Source of the DNA: a virus
Direction: 5' to 3' (one strand)
Virus record (IMG/VR): IMGVR_UViG_3300009509_000023
Span: 1-60,068 of that record
Length of the DNA stretch: 60,068 bases
Under the pieces are notes generated by a model. The model saw only the letters and a list, made by a program, of their open reading frames with translations, was not told the origin of the DNA and did no database searches. Below are positions 15,301 to 42,025 of the stretch, one piece after another. Each line of letters starts with the position of its first letter. The first letter of the stretch is position 1. The position numbers and the translations under genes were made by a program.

Positions 15301-15332
15301 CATGTGGTATTTCTACCTGTACGGAGATCGAC

Positions 15333-18300
15333 ATGAGCATGATGCCGGCAGGAATCCTAATCGAGGCGAAGAAGCCTAACCCCGAGAATTTCGTCCCCGT
15401 CTTCGATTTCAGCTCGAAAGTTGTATGGGTCTGGGTGAAGAACCCCGGAGGCAAGGTTGTCGGGCCCGTAGAGGTGCCTCACAAGAACGTGAATAAGTAC
15501 GCGGGAAAACTGGGCTGGCCTGCAACGAAAATCGAGTACGTGGGGCAGATCGACCCTACCACCTATTCGTCGTGGAAGACCGACATCTTCAATCCGAACT
15601 GGAAGAGCGAGAAAGACCCTGGAGACGAGGATCCTATTGTCGGTGTGTATGCTCCGCCGGTCGTCGCTGAGCCGAAGAAAAAGAAGCCGAAAGGGGCGTC
15701 CAAGGCGTTTCTGCAAGGGCTTGCTTCTCTCTCAGAGCCCGAGCACCCCAAAGAATTCACGCTCACGGGTAAAAAGGACCCGAACGGGCATCCGACGGTC
15801 ATAAATAGTGAGACAGACGAGACTTTCACCGTTCTTCCGAGCGGAGGGTACGGGAAGTGGGAGGACGAAGAGGGAGTTTACTACATAGCGAAAAAATCGA
15901 AGGAAGGCTGGTCCATCCACCTCGATTCCCCGGTGTACGCGCCAGAGGATGTGGTTCTGAAAAAGGAGCCAGAAGCCGCCAAGGAAAAGACCCCTGAAGA
16001 GTTCGAGCTGCCGCCTAACTACTCCGTGTCCAAAGTGGACCCGGACTACGTGATGGCCAAGACTCCGGATGGGACGGAGGTACAGTGGATCAAGATCCTC
16101 AATATGTGGGTCCACGCGGACAACCCGACGAAAGAGCATGACCCGTTGGAGGCCGCTCACACGCCCGAGAAAGCTCCGGAGCCGGAGACGAAGAAGGGGC
16201 AGCCGTCGACGAAGAAGCCGCCACAGAAGGCCGTAGTGGCCTCGGAACCGGAAGAAGAGCCGGCTCTCCTCAAATACACCGGACACGTCGATCCGAACGG
16301 CTTCCCGCTTGTCAACGAATACGATGAAGTAGATGAAGATGAGATTGTGAATATCGAGCTGACGCTTCTTCCAGATGACAGAGCAGCTAGGTGGCGCTCA
16401 TCTTACGGGGACTACCTCCTGTACGAGTATGACCCACACGAGGGCTACATATTTTCGTTATCTGGGGAGACTATGCTCCCAGAGGACGTGAAAGCGTTGA
16501 TGAAGAAGCTGTCTCTGACAGTGAAGAATGGGAAGTACCACAAAGTCTCCTATGCCGGAGCAGAGAAGCCGGAGACACCGAGCTACCAAGTTCCTCTTCC
16601 TGGCCACTGCAAACTCATCGGAAAGAAGGACGCCAACGGCCTTCAGATGGTCGAGACCGTCCCTGAAGATGAAGAGGACGAGGATGTGAAAATCCTGTCC
16701 CTGCTCCCGGACAGCCGTCTCGGGGAATGGGACGAGCAGACCAAGAAGTACCAAATTTGGTCGTGGTTCGCGATCATGGGCTTCTACGACTACTACCCGA
16801 CGCAGCCCTCTGTCTTTGTGGGGCTGAAAGAAGTTCAGAAGCTGATAGCTCAGGTTCCCGCGCCCGCTCCCACGCCGGAGCAGGTTCCGCCTCCACCGCC
16901 ATCCATGCCATACGGAGACTCGAAAAAGAAGTGGTCTTCGAAAGAATTCAAGGCTCTCCAATTCCTTATGAGTCATACGCCGCATTTGAAGGGATACGAT
17001 GTGCAGCCCTACTCGGATCCCAACGGAATGGTGTGGCTGAAAGATAAGCACGACGGCGCGAATCGTACTCTTCTCCCGACCCTAGCAGTGGCTGTTTGGA
17101 ACGGGACAACGTATGAAGCCGTGTCTCCGGACAATTATGGCCTCGTGCATAAGGGAGATTTATTCACGGTCGAGCAGGCCAAAGCACTCAAGGGGAAGGT
17201 CGAAGCGCTCAAAAAAAAGGCAGGCGAGCAAGGTCTTCTCAAGCCGACGGGAGAGACGGACCCGAACGGCTATCCGATCGGCGAGTACAAAAGCGGCACC
17301 TACACCATGCTGCCGGACAATCAGGTCGGAATATGGTTGAACGACAAAGGGTTGTACTCGATCTACGAACTCGATCCAGAGGACGGTTACTATCACCCAA
17401 CATCGAAGGAGTGGCTGGTTCCTGGGAAACACGCTTCGGTAGCCACTGCAAACATATCAGGACTCGATTTAGCTCAGGTGAAGGATAGTGATGGTAACGT
17501 TGCTATTGTTCTACCACACGGGCTGTTTGTCGCTCCGACTCTCACAGGCCCGCACGCAGGACAGTTTGTTCTACAGGCGGTTGACCCGAAAACGAAGCTA
17601 TTCACTCCTACGGATAAAGCTGTATCACCTCAACAGATCAAAGCCGCTTTGGGCGATGCTGACTTCGATGACATGGCGTACAAGTCTCTGAAGCCGACCG
17701 GAGAGGTGGATATCAACGGGCTTCCCACCTACAAAGTGGTGAAAGGGGCGGATGCTGGGAAAAATTTCTCGTTGCTGCCGGATGGGTGGTTTGCGAGTTG
17801 GAGACCGAAGAAGAACGCCTACGTCAAGTTCCAGTTCGTTTCGCTATCGCCCGAATACGACGACTATTGGGAGCCCACAGATAAGTGGGTGCAACTGAGC
17901 GATCTCGACGCTATGTATTTGAAGCAGAGTGAGGTGTCGATTTTAGGTGGCGAAGAAGGCGCGGAAGAGGAAGAGCCCGAGGAGGTCCCAGAGCCGATCC
18001 CAGAGAAGCCTGCTCCGGTGTCGGAGCTGAGCAAAGCGCTCGAAGGAAAACTTCCTGACGTGAGCAAGTTGAAGTACCTTGGGCCCGGGTCGAAATTCGG
18101 TCTTGGTGGCGCGGGGAAGAAGGATATCTACGAGGACAAGTCGACGAAGAAGCGCTACATTTTCAAGCCGGCGTATGTCAAGGGCTCGAAAAAGGTGGAG
18201 GAGTTCCGCGCTCACGCGCAAGAGGCCGCGTCAGCTCTCGCTTTGGCGATTCGCCCAGAGCACGTCCCGGTAAAGATGGTGACCCTCAAAGGCGTTGTCG

Positions 18301-20759
18301 GGACGCTTCAACCGTGGGTGGACCTCGACCCCTCGAAAGGCACTCTCGAGGACGTTTCTCCGAAGTCTCTTACCGACCAGCAAAAGAAGGACGTGGCAAC
18401 AGATCACCTCATGGACTGGGCTCTTTCGCAGCACGACTCCTACGACGGGAACATGGTGTATTCCGCAGACGGTCATATTTTGTCCATCGACAAGGAGCAG
18501 GGCTTCAAGTTTTTCGGGAAGGATGAGCTATCGTCGACGTACAACCCGAACCCCATCGAGCCTTTTTACAACAAGTTCTGGCGCGATTTCGCCGACAACA
18601 AGATGGACTTCGATCCCAAAGTGATGAAGGACGCTCTCGATAAAATTCGAGAGATCAATCCGCAAGACTATGTCAATATGGTCCGGCCTTACGCGGAGAC
18701 CTATTTCAAAGGGGACAAGAAGGCTCAGCGCCAGTTCCTTCGGAAGGTACTCTCTCGAAAGCTCCATCTCGAGGCCGACTTCGAGGAGTTCATCACGGGG
18801 CTCTACAAAAAACGGACGAAGCAGGGTGGGAAGTTCACTTTCGACAAGGGGTGGTTGCCTACCGATGCTCCCGCTGAGCCCGGTGAAGAGGAGGAAGAGG
18901 AGAAGCTAGTCTTTACAGGTAAGAAATCCGTGAATCTCGTAACGGGAAGTGGAAATGCTATTCCTACCGAGGAGTTCCTGAAGCACTTGAAGTTCAAATG
19001 GGGAATCAAAAAATACCACGCGCACAACCCCGACACTGGTGCGGAAGATCCGAGCTATCCCTATGTCACGCTGAAAGTCGAGATTACCCAAGCCGACCAG
19101 CTGAAGCGCTTTCTGAAGAAAGCGGGTTTGAAGCCTCAGCCGATCCTGAAGGACGGCGCTACCGAGTTGACGGGCCAGTACTACTACATGACTCCGGTCA
19201 AAAAATCGGACTGGGAGAATCTGGTATTCGAGGACACGCCATATGTCACGCCTCTCGGTGGGAGCTATGGTTCGTATGATCCTACCACTGCGGAGTTTCC
19301 ACAACAGCCAGACCAACCAAAGCATTTCGGAACCACGGTTGAATTTGAACCTCCAGAAGCGAAGCCTAATGTGCAAATTCTAAATAAAAAGGCAGAGCAG
19401 CTAGCCGAGGACCCGAAAGTGAAGCAGGTGAACGGGACCGTGATTGGATTTGATGGTGGGGACGTGGAAGGGGCTAACGGCCGTCTTAGAAAGTATAAAG
19501 ACGCGAAAGGATTTTACCTACAAAAGCAGTTCAAAATGAGGAGAGAGCAGTGGGAAGATGTGAACAAGGCTCTAGAGGAGCAACCTTCGGATGAGCGAAA
19601 GTGGAAGCCTGAGAGTTTCAAGTTCTACACCGGTCCGTACAGCAAAAAGTCCGGAGCTGTGGAACTTGGAACGACTATGGTTCACAGTTCGGCAGAGTTC
19701 AATGCCTTCAAGTTTTCTTTCAAAGAGGGTGATCTGTATATAGCGAGAATCGGATCAGGCACTGCGAAGTCTTTCACCCCGTACAGCTTCGTGGCTAGTG
19801 TGGTGGCACAGATACGCGATATGAGTGTGGATGCATTGGCGACGTTGAAGAAGTGGTTGAACAAAGTAATGGATGGGCTCGGGGACAAGCTGTTCAAGCC
19901 ACCTACAAAAGCAGAGATCGAGCGGAAAAAGTTGTTCCGCTTGGCGTGGGTCTTTGGTGGGAACAAAGCCCACTCATTGAAGGCGAACAATACGACGAAG
20001 ATAGTTCGTTCTAAAGCTGAAGCCTACCTGCAAGAGCAATCGAAATACATGAAGGATGGAGGCTACACACTGGATGAGGCCCTAGCGCTGATGGAGGAGC
20101 AGGAGGTTCTTCCAGGCTATTCCACGCACGTGCTTCCGGGAAGGTGGAGAAAACTTGCACAGGGAAAGGTGTGGTTTGTACATCAGGGATTCGATTTGGC
20201 GGTTATACCGTCGATAGCTCGATCGGGGCTTCTTGGAATTCATATGCGGAATCAGCTGGGGGTCTATTCTCCATCGAAGGGCAGCTCGTTCGGAACGGAT
20301 ACAAACACCGGTGCCGGAGATCAAACGTTATGTCGTTTGGCTACATCGCAGTACGCCAGCAAGAGCCCAGAGGCGATCAACCTCTACGGGGAGTGCATCG
20401 CCGTCGTTCATCCCGAAGTGGCAGACCGATTGGACACCTATTTTTACAATGGAGACAAGTACGGAAAGTGCTGCCCGACGGCGACGGAGTGGAAACACAT
20501 CCAACCTTTGGAGGAGAAAATTCACTCCACCTATCTGGACGTGAATAACGAAATAATGTTCCGCCAGGGTATTGACGTGAGGAAAATTCTCCGCATCGTG
20601 GTAAAGAACGGAGAGCCGTATCGCCAGAAAGCTCTCAAGATATGCCAAAATGCTAATGTGACAGAAGTGAACGGAATTCCGGTGGCGGAATTCATTGTTA
20701 CCGCAAGTAACGGTCAGGAGATCTGGGATAAATACGTAAAGCCCATAGCGGGGATATGA
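15333..20759 (+). CDS. Giant multidomain protein: tandem repeats, HipA/PI-kinase-like domain, probable ADP-ribosyltransferase
   Basis: An 1808-residue protein, the largest in the window. Residues about 140-870 contain roughly seven degenerate repeats of about 80-100 residues, marked by G-x-x-D-x-N-G-x-P and a later LLPD (for example GKKDPNGHP, GHVDPNGFP, GETDPNGYP, GEVDINGLP), separated by Pro/Lys/Glu linkers. Residues about 910-1140 resemble a HipA/phosphatidylinositol-kinase fold: a Gly-rich loop FGLGGAGKK, His1034-Asp1035 with Asn1040 (HDSYDGN), and a metal-binding Asp1053 in LSIDKEQGF. Residues about 1610-1760 resemble ADP-ribosyltransferases of the DarT/Tpt1 type: FVHQGFDLAVIPSIARSGLL with His1617, and Glu1740 in NEIMFRQGIDVRKIL. 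The function is inferred: it could modify host proteins or nucleic acids. Placement among replication genes, not head genes, leaves it open whether it is packaged in the virion. Confidence 0.72.
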   Translation: MSMMPAGILIEAKKPNPENFVPVFDFSSKVVWVWVKNPGGKVVGPVEVPHKNVNKYAGKLGWPATKIEYVGQIDPTTYSSWKTDIFNPNWKSEKDPGDEDPIVGVYAPPVVAEPKKKKPKGASKAFLQGLASLSEPEHPKEFTLTGKKDPNGHPTVINSETDETFTVLPSGGYGKWEDEEGVYYIAKKSKEGWSIHLDSPVYAPEDVVLKKEPEAAKEKTPEEFELPPNYSVSKVDPDYVMAKTPDGTEVQWIKILNMWVHADNPTKEHDPLEAAHTPEKAPEPETKKGQPSTKKPPQKAVVASEPEEEPALLKYTGHVDPNGFPLVNEYDEVDEDEIVNIELTLLPDDRAARWRSSYGDYLLYEYDPHEGYIFSLSGETMLPEDVKALMKKLSLTVKNGKYHKVSYAGAEKPETPSYQVPLPGHCKLIGKKDANGLQMVETVPEDEEDEDVKILSLLPDSRLGEWDEQTKKYQIWSWFAIMGFYDYYPTQPSVFVGLKEVQKLIAQVPAPAPTPEQVPPPPPSMPYGDSKKKWSSKEFKALQFLMSHTPHLKGYDVQPYSDPNGMVWLKDKHDGANRTLLPTLAVAVWNGTTYEAVSPDNYGLVHKGDLFTVEQAKALKGKVEALKKKAGEQGLLKPTGETDPNGYPIGEYKSGTYTMLPDNQVGIWLNDKGLYSIYELDPEDGYYHPTSKEWLVPGKHASVATANISGLDLAQVKDSDGNVAIVLPHGLFVAPTLTGPHAGQFVLQAVDPKTKLFTPTDKAVSPQQIKAALGDADFDDMAYKSLKPTGEVDINGLPTYKVVKGADAGKNFSLLPDGWFASWRPKKNAYVKFQFVSLSPEYDDYWEPTDKWVQLSDLDAMYLKQSEVSILGGEEGAEEEEPEEVPEPIPEKPAPVSELSKALEGKLPDVSKLKYLGPGSKFGLGGAGKKDIYEDKSTKKRYIFKPAYVKGSKKVEEFRAHAQEAASALALAIRPEHVPVKMVTLKGVVGTLQPWVDLDPSKGTLEDVSPKSLTDQQKKDVATDHLMDWALSQHDSYDGNMVYSADGHILSIDKEQGFKFFGKDELSSTYNPNPIEPFYNKFWRDFADNKMDFDPKVMKDALDKIREINPQDYVNMVRPYAETYFKGDKKAQRQFLRKVLSRKLHLEADFEEFITGLYKKRTKQGGKFTFDKGWLPTDAPAEPGEEEEEEKLVFTGKKSVNLVTGSGNAIPTEEFLKHLKFKWGIKKYHAHNPDTGAEDPSYPYVTLKVEITQADQLKRFLKKAGLKPQPILKDGATELTGQYYYMTPVKKSDWENLVFEDTPYVTPLGGSYGSYDPTTAEFPQQPDQPKHFGTTVEFEPPEAKPNVQILNKKAEQLAEDPKVKQVNGTVIGFDGGDVEGANGRLRKYKDAKGFYLQKQFKMRREQWEDVNKALEEQPSDERKWKPESFKFYTGPYSKKSGAVELGTTMVHSSAEFNAFKFSFKEGDLYIARIGSGTAKSFTPYSFVASVVAQIRDMSVDALATLKKWLNKVMDGLGDKLFKPPTKAEIERKKLFRLAWVFGGNKAHSLKANNTTKIVRSKAEAYLQEQSKYMKDGGYTLDEALALMEEQEVLPGYSTHVLPGRWRKLAQGKVWFVHQGFDLAVIPSIARSGLLGIHMRNQLGVYSPSKGSSFGTDTNTGAGDQTLCRLATSQYASKSPEAINLYGECIAVVHPEVADRLDTYFYNGDKYGKCCPTATEWKHIQPLEEKIHSTYLDVNNEIMFRQGIDVRKILRIVVKNGEPYRQKALKICQNANVTEVNGIPVAEFIVTASNGQEIWDKYVKPIAGI
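15750..17935 (+). repeat. Array of about seven degenerate coding repeats in the giant gene
   Basis: The encoded units share D-x-N-G-x-P near the start, LLPD about 20-30 residues later, then a Trp or Tyr-rich strand. Clear units begin near nucleotides 15756, 16273, 16603, 17233 and 17689; more divergent ones lie near 16995 and 17460. The DNA is not nearly identical between units, so the array is old. Confidence 0.7.
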
Positions 20760-21157
20760 TGTCGTTGAACTACAAACAGACCTATGTGATGCACGACTAC
20801 TCCGATCCTGAGAACAAGGTGACGGTTATCGTGCTGGCTCCAAGGACGATAGATTACGACGGGATACGATACTTGCAGGTGAAGTTTCCTGCGGTAATTC
20901 CGGGGCATGGCGGCCACTCTATTCGTAATCCGATAATTCTAGAGGACAACGAAGACGGATCTGTTCGAGTAGAATCGGATGAAGGTGGAGAGTATCTGTT
21001 TCAGCTTCTCACCGTCGATCTGTTGAAGAGGTATTTTCCGGACGACGCCGCGGACCCGGAAATACTCACACCAGCTACAACAGATTCGTGGTTACGGTGG
21101 TGGTATTACCAGAATTTTGTAGATGAAGAGAGCTGGCCAGAGCATCTTGAAGTATGA
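20756..21157 (+). CDS. Hypothetical protein
   Basis: A 133-residue protein; the first two codons are both ATG and overlap the stop of the giant gene. It is beta-rich at the N-terminus (KVTVIVLAPRTIDYDGIRYL) and acidic at the C-terminus. No domain is recognised. Coupling to the 1808-residue protein suggests a chaperone or an immunity-like partner, but nothing in the sequence proves it. Confidence 0.55.
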   Translation: MMSLNYKQTYVMHDYSDPENKVTVIVLAPRTIDYDGIRYLQVKFPAVIPGHGGHSIRNPIILEDNEDGSVRVESDEGGEYLFQLLTVDLLKRYFPDDAADPEILTPATTDSWLRWWYYQNFVDEESWPEHLEV

Positions 21158-39487: not shown

Positions 39488-42025
39488 ATGGCTGAGATTT
39501 TATCTCCCGGCATATTCATCGAAGAGGTGCCGAGCGCGGTACAGGTGGTTCAGCCTGTTTCCACATCGAACATGGGGATCATCGGCGCGACTCAGAGGGG
39601 CCCGACGGACGAGGCGACTCTGGTCACGTCTTTCGCCCAGTTCACCCGCATTTTTGGTGAGCTGATCGCGGACTCGTGGACCGGCCTCTCCATGGCCGCG
39701 TATTTCGCGAACGGTGGAAGGCGGGCCTACGTGGTTCGCGTCATGCCGGGCGACGCCTCAGAGGCGGACGGCAGAGTCACAAGCGCGCGATACGACTTCA
39801 CGTGCTTCACCGGAAACGCAGTCAAGGTCACCATCACGGACACAGACGCGTCCGGCGTCGTGTTGGCGGATTTCCCCGTGTATGCCCTGTCGGGTACGGC
39901 TGGAGTGACGTGGAGATGGCGCGCTGACGACACGCCCGTGACGACTGAAAACTTGTATGAGAGAGACGGCGTGACCGCTCTCGTCCAGGACACTGTCGGT
40001 CACGTGAATCACCACTACGAGGGCCGAGTCATCACGTCGATGCCGAGCGATGGCGTGGATTCAGCGCTTCCGAGCATCATGCCCGGAGGCACGATCACGC
40101 TGAACTGGGATCCGACCGGCAGTTCTCCACTCACGATGACGCTGACTCAGGTCGGGACGACTCTTCGAGCTGCCGGAACGACTGTGCAGAATTCGGAAGC
40201 GGTGCTCGATCTCGTGACGGGGTATCTGTCCATCACGTTTGCCGGAACCGATGTTCCTGTGGTCGGCGGCGATGGAACCAACATCACGCTCGACTACACA
40301 CCGGGAACGGACGTGTACTCGGTGTCGGACGATGGAACAGGGGCCATTCCCGCGGATGGAACGATTCTGGCGGGTGCTGGAACCGTCACCTACGCGACGG
40401 GCGCGTATTCGTTCACGGTCAACGCCGGGTACGAGCCGGGAACAGACTGCCCTGTCGTGGTCGACTACGATGTGCAGGCGTGGGACCTCGATCCAATCTC
40501 CGTCGGAACGTGGGCGAATAACATGAAGCTGGAGGTCATCGGAAACGACGACTACTACACGGTGGCTACGGACACCTATTCCCGCTTCAATGTCAATGTT
40601 CGACTACTCAACTCTTCGACGAGCCTCTACGACATCATCGAGACCTACGAGGAGATTACCTTCACTGACTCAACGTCGGCGCAGTACTTCCCGGATGTTC
40701 TCAACGACCTGTCGGACTTGGTCAACGTCGTAGAGCCGGCGCTCAACGAGGAAGGACCGCAACACCTCAATGGGCGAGCGCGAAGCCTCGTTATGGCTGG
40801 TGGAGATGAGCTGGCCTCGAATCGTCAAATCACGACCACCCTTCTCGACCTTCCGATCTCTCCGAGGTCTTTCAGCATCTCGTGGACAGATGACACGGGA
40901 ACAGCGAGAAGCATCACAGACGACGGCGCCGGCAATCTCATCGGCGACGTTGACGGTGCTGGCAACAACACCCTCAGCTACACCACGGGCGCTCTCGATG
41001 TGTTGCTGTCGAACGCCATCGGGCAGGACCAGCTCGTCACGGCCGACTACCGTAGCGTTTCCGAGGAGGACAACCACCTCGACATCTTTGCCAACGGCAC
41101 TGACGGCACGTTCGATGCTACCAACTACGGTCGGAACCAGTTCACGGCGATTACCCTCGAGCCGAACTTCCAAGGCCTATACGCCTTGAACAAGATCGAG
41201 GAGCTGATGCAAGTCGTCATTCCGGACTTCGCTGGAGACATCCAGATCACGAAGGACTTGATGGACTACGTGGACAGTCGAGAGGTACTGCCTTCGGGCG
41301 GCGATCGTTTCGCCATCCTCATGACTCCGCAGGGTTCGACGGCGCAAGAAGCGGTGGACTTCCTTCGACTCGACGTTCTTCAAAACACGAAGTTTGCGGC
41401 GATGTACTGGCCGTGGGTGAAGGTCGCGAACCCGCTGGCCGACAACAGACCGATCGTGTTCCCTCCGTTGGGGCACATCGCTGGCATCTACGCGCGCACG
41501 GACTCCACGAGGAACGTGGGCAAGGTTCCGGCGGGCACCGTTGACGGCGCGCTTCGTTTCCTGGTTGGATTGGAGTTCGACGCAATCAGCCAGGGAGAGC
41601 GCGATATCGTCTATCCGGCGAGGATCAACCCCCTCGTGTCGGGGACGCAGACCGGCCTCGCTGTCTGGGGTGCGCGAACAACCTCTCTTCAGAGCGAGTG
41701 GCGCTACATCAACGCGCGCCGTTTGTTCATGTTCGTCGAGAAGAGCGTTTACAACTCGACACACTGGATCGCCTTCGAGAACAACGGGGCGGACTTGTGG
41801 GCGAGGATCAAGGCCCAGCTGCAGGGCTTCTTGACGAACCTCTTCAACGACGGGCTGTTTGCGGGAACGACTCCGGCGCAAGCTTTCTTCGTGACCGTGG
41901 ACGAATCGAACAACGACCAGGCGTCGGTCGACGCCGGCCAGGTCATCATCGACGTGGGCATTGCACCGAACAAGCCGGCCGAGTTCGTGAGATTCAGGTT
42001 CCAGCAGAAGACGCTGGATTCCTAG
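39488..42025 (+). CDS. Tail sheath protein, gp18-like
   Basis: An 845-residue contractile sheath protein with CGGAGGCAACC before ATG 39488. The N-terminus ILSPGIFIEEVPSAVQVVQP and MGIIGATQRGPTDEATLVTS are typical of sheath proteins, as is the C-terminal WRYINARRLFMFVEKSVYNS with the last strand EFVRFRFQQKTLDS. The middle carries an insertion of several beta domains (about 200-340 and 455-525) with the motifs VSDDGTGAIP and ITDDGAGNLIG, like an insert in the capsid protein. These are probably surface decorations. The chain is longer than T4 gp18 (659 residues). Confidence 0.9.
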   Translation: MAEILSPGIFIEEVPSAVQVVQPVSTSNMGIIGATQRGPTDEATLVTSFAQFTRIFGELIADSWTGLSMAAYFANGGRRAYVVRVMPGDASEADGRVTSARYDFTCFTGNAVKVTITDTDASGVVLADFPVYALSGTAGVTWRWRADDTPVTTENLYERDGVTALVQDTVGHVNHHYEGRVITSMPSDGVDSALPSIMPGGTITLNWDPTGSSPLTMTLTQVGTTLRAAGTTVQNSEAVLDLVTGYLSITFAGTDVPVVGGDGTNITLDYTPGTDVYSVSDDGTGAIPADGTILAGAGTVTYATGAYSFTVNAGYEPGTDCPVVVDYDVQAWDLDPISVGTWANNMKLEVIGNDDYYTVATDTYSRFNVNVRLLNSSTSLYDIIETYEEITFTDSTSAQYFPDVLNDLSDLVNVVEPALNEEGPQHLNGRARSLVMAGGDELASNRQITTTLLDLPISPRSFSISWTDDTGTARSITDDGAGNLIGDVDGAGNNTLSYTTGALDVLLSNAIGQDQLVTADYRSVSEEDNHLDIFANGTDGTFDATNYGRNQFTAITLEPNFQGLYALNKIEELMQVVIPDFAGDIQITKDLMDYVDSREVLPSGGDRFAILMTPQGSTAQEAVDFLRLDVLQNTKFAAMYWPWVKVANPLADNRPIVFPPLGHIAGIYARTDSTRNVGKVPAGTVDGALRFLVGLEFDAISQGERDIVYPARINPLVSGTQTGLAVWGARTTSLQSEWRYINARRLFMFVEKSVYNSTHWIAFENNGADLWARIKAQLQGFLTNLFNDGLFAGTTPAQAFFVTVDESNNDQASVDAGQVIIDVGIAPNKPAEFVRFRFQQKTLDS

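What the first reader, a model, noticed from the sequence alone, without database searches (positions are those of the whole stretch)
20160..20700. Probable ADP-ribosyltransferase domain at the end of the 1808-residue protein
FVHQGFDLAVIPSIARSGLL (His1617) and NEIMFRQGIDVRKIL (Glu1740) match the NAD-binding His and catalytic Glu segments of DarT/Tpt1-like transferases in order and spacing. Phages use such enzymes (for example T4 Alt and ModA) to redirect host proteins. Here it is the tail end of a giant chain, which is unusual.
Basis: inference. Interest (0 to 1): 0.66.

Follow-up and report, generated by a model that had tools for sequence, protein, structure and literature searches.

The report
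Phage DarT-like enzyme with coupled partner
The end of this giant phage protein folds like DarT, an enzyme that attaches ADP-ribose to DNA; it sits behind a kinase-like domain, and its gene is followed by a small partner gene found only beside this ART domain, a layout that looks like an injected phage effector with its own neutraliser.

Summary
Residues 1589-1808 of the 1808-aa protein form a confident predicted fold (pLDDT 87.7) whose best solved matches are DarT enzymes (Z 11.6 to 9.2). Glu1740 is invariant in 49 of 49 non-redundant rows and aligns with DarT's catalytic Glu. The His is wrong: His1617 occurs only in this protein. The neighbouring column 1618 holds His in 9 of 48 rows and Gln here. 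The usual Tyr position is mostly Arg.

Three facts go beyond the finding.
(1) Residues 904-1175 are a PI4K/HipA-type kinase fold with the main catalytic residues kept. The kinase plus C-terminal ART pair recurs across tailed phages; many relatives carry an N-terminal MuF head domain instead of this protein's repeats, which points to virion delivery.
(2) Directly downstream, overlapping the stop codon (20756-21157), lies a 133-aa gene of a new partner family. It accompanies this ART domain, not the kinase.
(3) ART and kinase diverge much faster than their syntenic neighbours.

Best reading: a phage-delivered NAD-dependent effector whose ART is held off by a dedicated immunity or chaperone protein. 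Fold and partner gene are shown computationally; activity, target and delivery are inferred. It is a new variant of a known kind.

The parts
15333..20759 (+). Giant gene, 1808 aa: N-terminal repeats, kinase-like domain, unassigned middle region, C-terminal DarT-like ART domain
   Evidence: ORF; syntenic in dozens of viral contigs between ParB and PolA/TerL/portal; upstream AGGAG-like motif at 15322-15327 seen in the start context printed
15756..17897 (+). Six diverged ~65-75-aa repeats (residues ~142-855; motif DxNG...LLPD...W)
   Evidence: Iterated HMM finds 6 copies here and 6-14 in the giant proteins of close relatives L165, L169, L176
18042..18857 (+). Kinase-like domain (residues ~904-1175), PI4K/HipA type; K945, D1035, D1053 retained
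   Evidence: AF2 model of 904-1600: PI4KIIalpha Z 14.6, CtkA Z 13.7, HipT Z 10.1, HipA Z 9.0; HipA_C 4.4e-5 and PI3_PI4_kinase 2.8e-4 as best E among the four aligned members, none in the window itself; conservation
20097..20756 (+). DarT-like ADP-ribosyltransferase domain (residues 1589-1808)
   Evidence: AF2 model pLDDT 87.7; DarT matches; 126 matches in stop-to-stop ORFs, C-terminal in the proteins
20181..20186 (+).
20319..20336 (+). Asp1663 (counterpart of the invariant DarT Asp) to Arg1668 (position of DarT2 Tyr71 / DarT1 Ser63; Arg in 39/49)
   Evidence: register is by spacing, inferred
20454..20456 (+). Asp1708, invariant 49/49, by spacing at the base-reading position of DarT (DarT1 Asn104, DarT2 His119)
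   Evidence: residue roles from PMC11543638; register inferred
20550..20552 (+). Glu1740, ART-characteristic glutamate
   Evidence: invariant 49/49; aligned with the DarT catalytic Glu
20756..21157 (+). Partner gene, 133 aa, overlaps the giant's stop codon (ATATGATG); putative immunity protein or dedicated chaperone of the ART domain
   Evidence: Window protein E 1.5e-14 to an HMM built without it; adjacent to 56/73 distinct ART genes; absent beside 12 kinase genes with other C-termini

Best explanation
The C-terminal 220 residues are a DarT-like, NAD-dependent mono-ADP-ribosyltransferase: Glu1740 polarises NAD, and the conserved Arg/Asp loops (R1639, D1656, D1663, D1708) hold NAD and the acceptor. 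It is one of two enzyme modules of a phage effector; the other is a PI4K/HipA-type kinase. The protein is made with the phage's packaging and head genes, carried in or with the virion, and injected to modify host (or rival phage) macromolecules; nucleic acid is the first guess for the ART target because DarT is the nearest relative. The 133-aa protein encoded in an overlapping frame directly after it binds the ART domain and keeps it inactive while the producing cell makes particles. Shown computationally: fold, conservation of the Glu, architecture, synteny, partner-gene association with the ART rather than the kinase. Inferred: catalysis, target, virion delivery, partner function.
For: Fold: AF2 pLDDT 87.7/pTM 0.87; DarT1 8baq Z 11.6 over 162 residues, DarTG 7omu Z 11.3, Thermus DarT 10.0, far above Tpt1 7.1 and other ARTs at 5-6; Foldseek E 6.1e-4, probability 1.00. 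Profile: probability 87% against DarT, controls at most 1.9%; weak Pfam DarT hits in 5/31 members, best E 0.012. Active site: E1740 49/49 and G1650, D1656, G1660, R1699, D1701, D1708, G1711 all 49/49. Kinase: Z 14.6 to PI4KIIalpha, catalytic K/D/D kept. Delivery: relatives with the same kinase + ART carry Phage_Mu_F above the Pfam cut-off (L018 4.1e-15, L054 1.1e-13, L059 6.8e-11, L202 1.8e-9, L016 4.8e-9, L066, L056); L184 and L209 show a sub-cut-off MuF match + ART without a detected kinase; a mycobacterial prophage protein is VG15 minor capsid + kinase + a different ART (ADPrib_exo_Tox 1.5e-15). Context: conserved order RuvC-p302-ParB-giant-p163-PolA-p221-TerL-p113-portal in a Gp23-type contractile-tailed phage. 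Fast evolution: versus L176/L177 and their contig-mates L087/L086, ART 30% and kinase 45% against PolA 69%, portal 89%, MCP 85%. Partner.
Against: No residue-level structural superposition was available, so roles of R1668 and D1708 rest on spacing. The window protein has Ile at 1723 where all 46 other rows have Arg; this could weaken activity. The family lacks a conserved H-Y pair, so a non-transferase use (NAD cleavage, ADP-ribose binding) is possible. The window's own protein has no detectable MuF or other head domain, so delivery is argued from relatives. The partner HMM fails beside one clade of ART genes (L018-like and others, 17 of 73), where a different ~170-aa ORF follows, and the sequences of L006, L209, L211, L212, L213 fail leave-one-out.
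Confidence: 0.68

Rival explanations
1. Catalytically dead or non-transferase ART fold: the domain binds ADP-ribose/NAD-derived signals or acts as a scaffold in the virion; conservation reflects binding.
For: His of strand 1 not conserved and Tyr position mostly Arg; window loses an otherwise invariant Arg (I1723).
Against: The ART Glu is invariant across 49 very divergent rows together with eight other polar or glycine columns; DarT1 itself has Ser in place of the Tyr and is active (PMC11543638); a partner specific to the ART domain fits an activity that must be restrained.
Confidence: 0.15
2. An intracellular, not injected, DNA-modifying toxin: expressed late to shut out competing phages or to finish off the host, with the 133-aa protein as classical antitoxin.
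For: DarT is a DNA-acting toxin of a toxin-antitoxin system (PMC11543638); adjacent coupled partner; no MuF domain detected in the window protein.
Against: Same domain pair is fused to MuF head proteins in many relatives; kinase, repeats and 1808 aa are far beyond a simple toxin; gene lies in the packaging-gene neighbourhood.
Confidence: 0.17
3. The partner is not an immunity protein but a chaperone that keeps the C-terminal domain unfolded or loaded for packaging.
For: Translational coupling and co-occurrence are equally expected; partner extended to 397-580 aa in some phages.
Against: Partner is as divergent as the ART and follows it even without the kinase, as immunity proteins do; small ORFs follow 89.4% of MuF toxin genes (PMC5576092).
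Confidence: 0.35
4. RNA 2'-phosphotransferase (Tpt1/KptA) repair enzyme.
For: Tpt1 structures appear next after DarT, Z up to 7.1.
Against: Large gap to DarT; invariant catalytic Glu, whereas Tpt1/KptA is of the H-H-h clade (PMC9503650); no RNA-repair genes identified among the window proteins searched.
Confidence: 0.02

Closest known systems
DarT (DarTG toxin; PF14487; E. coli C7 DarT1 8baq, Thermus DarT 7omv)
   Same: Overall fold (Z 11.6-9.2), strand order, catalytic Glu, conserved Asp before the second strand, small adjacent partner gene
   Different: About 11% identity; no conserved strand-1 His, Arg in place of Tyr/Ser, Asp at the base-reading position; fused to kinase and giant N-terminal region; partner has no Pfam or PDB match seen here and is not a recognised macrodomain or NADAR
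MuF polymorphic toxins of temperate phages (PMC5576092)
   Same: N-terminal head (MuF) domain in relatives, variable middle, C-terminal effector, small ORF directly downstream
   Different: Window subfamily has no detectable MuF; carries a PI4K/HipA-like kinase; lies in contractile-tailed Gp23-type phages; the reported MuF toxins are mostly from siphophages
Polyvalent proteins with Tox-ART-HYD2 ARTs (PMC5512222)
   Same: Large multi-domain phage proteins combining an ART with other enzymes, predicted to be injected
   Different: Those ARTs have H-Y-D active sites; their kinases are a truncated Ser/Thr/Tyr type, not the PI4K/HipA-like type found here
Mycobacteriophage kinase-ART proteins: Onyinye gp16, prophiFVLQ01-1 gp56
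   Same: Homologous kinase-like domain followed by a C-terminal ART; next to terminase/portal or fused to a minor capsid domain
   Different: Their ART is the R-S-E exoenzyme type (PF03496), and the downstream small ORF is not of the partner family
T4 Alt
   Same: Phage ART thought to be a model for head-delivered host modification
   Different: R-S-E clade; no sequence or close structural relation found here

Membership tests
ART (ADP-ribosyltransferase) superfamily | Split beta-sheet ART core by structure | tested here: met
   DarT and other ARTs fill the structural match list, best Z 11.6
ART (ADP-ribosyltransferase) superfamily | Conserved acidic residue of the last motif | tested here: met
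   E1740 49/49 and aligned with DarT Glu
ART (ADP-ribosyltransferase) superfamily | NAD-dependent ADP-ribose transfer | not testable with these tools
   needs an enzyme assay
DarT (PF14487) | Significant match to the family HMM | tested here: not met
   Window: none; 5/31 relatives weak, best E 0.012. So DarT-like fold, not filed as DarT
DarT (PF14487) | H-Y-E (DarT2) or equivalent strand-1 His and NH2-terminal HxTH...NL motif | tested here: not met
   Column 1617 His only in window; column 1618 His 9/48; Y position Arg 39/49
DarT (PF14487) | Adjacent macrodomain (DarG) or NADAR antitoxin | tested here: inconclusive
   Adjacent 133-aa partner has no Pfam hit and no PDB sequence match; its fold was not predicted
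Tpt1/KptA | H-H-h active site without catalytic Glu | tested here: not met
   Invariant Glu, no conserved His
PI3/PI4-kinase / HipA superfamily (residues 904-1175) | Kinase fold of this type | tested here: met
   PI4KIIalpha Z 14.6, CtkA 13.7, HipA 9.0; Pfam HipA_C 4.4e-5 best among homologues
PI3/PI4-kinase / HipA superfamily (residues 904-1175) | ATP Lys, catalytic Asp, metal Asp | tested here: met
   K945 31/32, D1035 32/32, D1053 31/32, all present in window
MuF polymorphic toxin | N-terminal Phage_Mu_F domain | tested here: not met
   Absent in window, present in at least seven relatives with the same kinase + ART
MuF polymorphic toxin | Small immunity-like ORF directly downstream | tested here: met
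   20756-21157 and homologues; immunity function itself not tested

The most novel reading that the evidence does not exclude
A so far undescribed, widespread phage toxin-immunity module: a DarT-derived ART with its own active-site signature (no His-Tyr pair, invariant Asp at the base-reading position, hence perhaps a new acceptor), paired on one virion-delivered chain with a lipid/protein-kinase-like enzyme, and restrained by a dedicated small protein family that travels with it. It recurs in MuF-type phages and in contractile-tailed, Gp23-type phages.
Probability: 0.35. Interest if true: 0.75.

Novelty: new variant of a known kind. Interest (0 to 1): 0.6.

Why it matters
It adds a DarT-type branch to the enzymes phages are thought to inject, joins it to a PI4K/HipA-type kinase, and supplies a testable neutraliser gene. 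DarT is best known as a bacterial anti-phage toxin; finding its fold on a phage effector with a coupled partner suggests the same chemistry is used by both sides. The rapid divergence of the effector against well-conserved neighbours marks it as a likely front line with the host. The partner family gives a direct handle: express the two genes together and apart.

Tried and rejected
Sequence searches with the window domain alone: Pfam, PHROGs, PDB, phage collection, one viral-contig scan; all empty or chance. The two phage-collection hits at E 0.3 and 9 (H13, H14): H14 lies in an antisense, unrelated gene, H13 is unannotated and was not pursued. NCBIfam, PHROGs and PADLOC on 31 members gave only noise. 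Tpt1-like reading rejected (lower Z, invariant Glu). His1617 as the catalytic His rejected by conservation. hhalign of a 14-sequence DarT profile against A3 gave only 16% probability; it rose to 87% with the larger, more diverse alignments plus solved DarT sequences, and the shuffled control was run to guard against over-reading it. The middle region 1176-1588 has no assigned fold: the structure matches covered only model residues 2-272, so it was not properly tested. Idea that the partner belongs to the kinase rejected: 0 of 12 kinase genes with other C-termini have it.

Full report
OBSERVATION. The 1808-aa ORF at 15333-20759 (+) and both quoted segments are present at the stated places. Nothing in Pfam, PHROGs or the PDB sequence set recognises the C-terminal domain from the window sequence alone.

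RELATIVES. A tblastn of the whole protein found only residues ~982-1169 in 12 mycobacteriophage records, several annotated as ADP-ribosyltransferase or minor capsid/ADP-ribosyltransferase fusions. An alignment of that region recovered 80 viral loci and the portal protein another 80; 39 of these encode the window's C-terminal domain. A scan with the domain alignment A3 added 49 viral loci and two bacterial genome contigs. In all, 126 matches were found in stop-to-stop ORFs of the loci, at the C-terminus of the proteins, nearly all with one or two kinase-like domains upstream.

ACTIVE SITE. In 49 non-redundant rows G1650, D1656, G1660, R1699, D1701, D1708, G1711, E1740 and G1781 never vary. Column 1618 has His in nine rows and Gln here. 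By spacing, G1632, D1663 and E1740 correspond to the three invariant DarT columns G16, D58 and E156 of alignment A4; R1668 then falls on DarT2 Tyr71 / DarT1 Ser63 and D1708 on DarT2 His119 / DarT1 Asn104, residues whose roles are described in PMC11543638 (DarT1 sequence). These two assignments are inferred. The window is the only row with Ile instead of Arg at 1723.

FOLD. AlphaFold2 on A3 gave pLDDT 87.7 and pTM 0.87. Foldseek ranks E. coli DarT1 first (E 6.1e-4, probability 1.00) and DarT chains fill the top six. VIA-align 2 gives DarT1 Z 11.6 (162 residues, rmsd 3.9), T. africanus DarTG 11.3, Thermus DarT 10.0 to 9.4, another DarT 9.2, then yeast Tpt1 7.1 and the rest below 7. Profile comparison with DarT: probability 87%, E 3.8e-6, against at most 1.9% and E 0.026 for 60 column-shuffled DarT profiles. 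I conclude DarT-like fold, but do not file it as DarT, because the family HMM is not met and the His/Tyr pair is absent.

KINASE-LIKE DOMAIN. The model of residues 904-1600 (pLDDT 82.6, pTM 0.61) matches PI4KIIalpha (Z 14.6), CtkA (13.7), VPS34 (10.6), HipT (10.1) and HipA (9.0) over model residues ~1-272. Pfam HipA_C and PI3_PI4_kinase hit homologues at 4.4e-5 and 2.8e-4. K945, D1035 and D1053 are conserved and present. The middle region 1176-1588 remains unassigned.

N-TERMINAL HALF. Six diverged ~70-aa repeats; 6 to 14 copies in the giant proteins of near relatives. No tblastn match to this half was found in 160 relatives' loci.

CONTEXT AND DELIVERY. The gene lies in a conserved order RuvC, p302, ParB, giant, p163, PolA, p221, TerL, p113, portal, in a phage with Gp23-type capsid, tail sheath, tape measure and baseplate genes. 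In relatives from other phages the same kinase + ART pair follows a Phage_Mu_F head-morphogenesis domain above the Pfam cut-off. A mycobacterial prophage has VG15 minor capsid + kinase + R-S-E ART on one chain. The literature describes MuF and polyvalent fusions as packaged, injected effectors (PMC9503650, PMC5512222, PMC5576092). Virion delivery is therefore likely but inferred for this protein.

DIVERGENCE. Against L176/L177 and their contig-mates L087/L086, identity is ART 30%, kinase 45%, ParB 71%, PolA 69%, portal 89%, capsid 85%. The effector evolves much faster than its neighbours.

PARTNER GENE. The 133-aa ORF 20756-21157 starts inside the giant's stop codon (ATATGATG). An HMM of 44 ORFs that sit directly downstream of other ART genes, built without the window, finds it at E 1.5e-14; 34 of 45 members pass 2e-8 in leave-one-out. 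In 22,731 ORFs of the loci, 91 of 95 matches are adjacent to an ART gene. Of 73 distinct ART genes with sequence downstream, 56 have the partner, 22 with the same ATGA-type overlap (the full model includes seeds, and five sequences, L006, L209, L211, L212 and L213, fail leave-one-out). Twelve kinase genes with other C-termini have none (best E 86), whereas ART genes without a detected kinase do. So the partner belongs to the ART. The exceptions are mostly one clade (L018-like), where another ~170-aa ORF takes the place. The partner has no Pfam or PDB match.

MECHANISM. Most likely: NAD-dependent mono-ADP-ribosylation by the C-terminal domain, probably of nucleic acid, possibly protein, after injection, together with a phosphotransfer by the kinase-like domain, with the partner holding the ART inactive in the producing cell. 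Fold, conservation, architecture, synteny and partner association are shown; catalysis, target, delivery and neutralisation are inferred. A literature search for MuF + HipA + phage + ADP-ribosyl in the held library found no paper, which is weak evidence that the combination is undescribed.

Noticed in passing
15756-17897: Six diverged ~70-aa repeats (DxNG...LLPD...W) fill the N-terminal half of the giant protein; copy number varies 6 to 14 in close relatives.
   Followed up: partly
L007, L008, L009, L012, L013, L136, L176: The partner family is the N-terminal part of a longer 397-580-aa protein in these phages.
   Followed up: no
L018-like loci (L018, L021, L028, L041, L082 and others): In this clade the ART gene is followed by an unrelated-looking ~170-aa ORF (MENII... 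/ MTMKDFIEQEK...), perhaps an alternative partner.
   Followed up: no
L215:2838-8630: A Myxococcota contig encodes the ART domain on a 1931-aa protein with an Annexin domain (E 6.9e-16).
   Followed up: no
L004:5749-11838: Mycobacteriophage Phrappuccino gp195 (2030 aa, hypothetical) has the kinase-like domain followed by what look like several R-S-E-type ART repeats by eye.
   Followed up: no
L016, L056, L059, L066, L202: MuF-type relatives carry a Rho_N domain between kinase and ART.
   Followed up: no
39488-42025: Tail sheath gene is long (845 aa); matches to sheath families lie mainly at the two ends, suggesting a large insertion.
   Followed up: no
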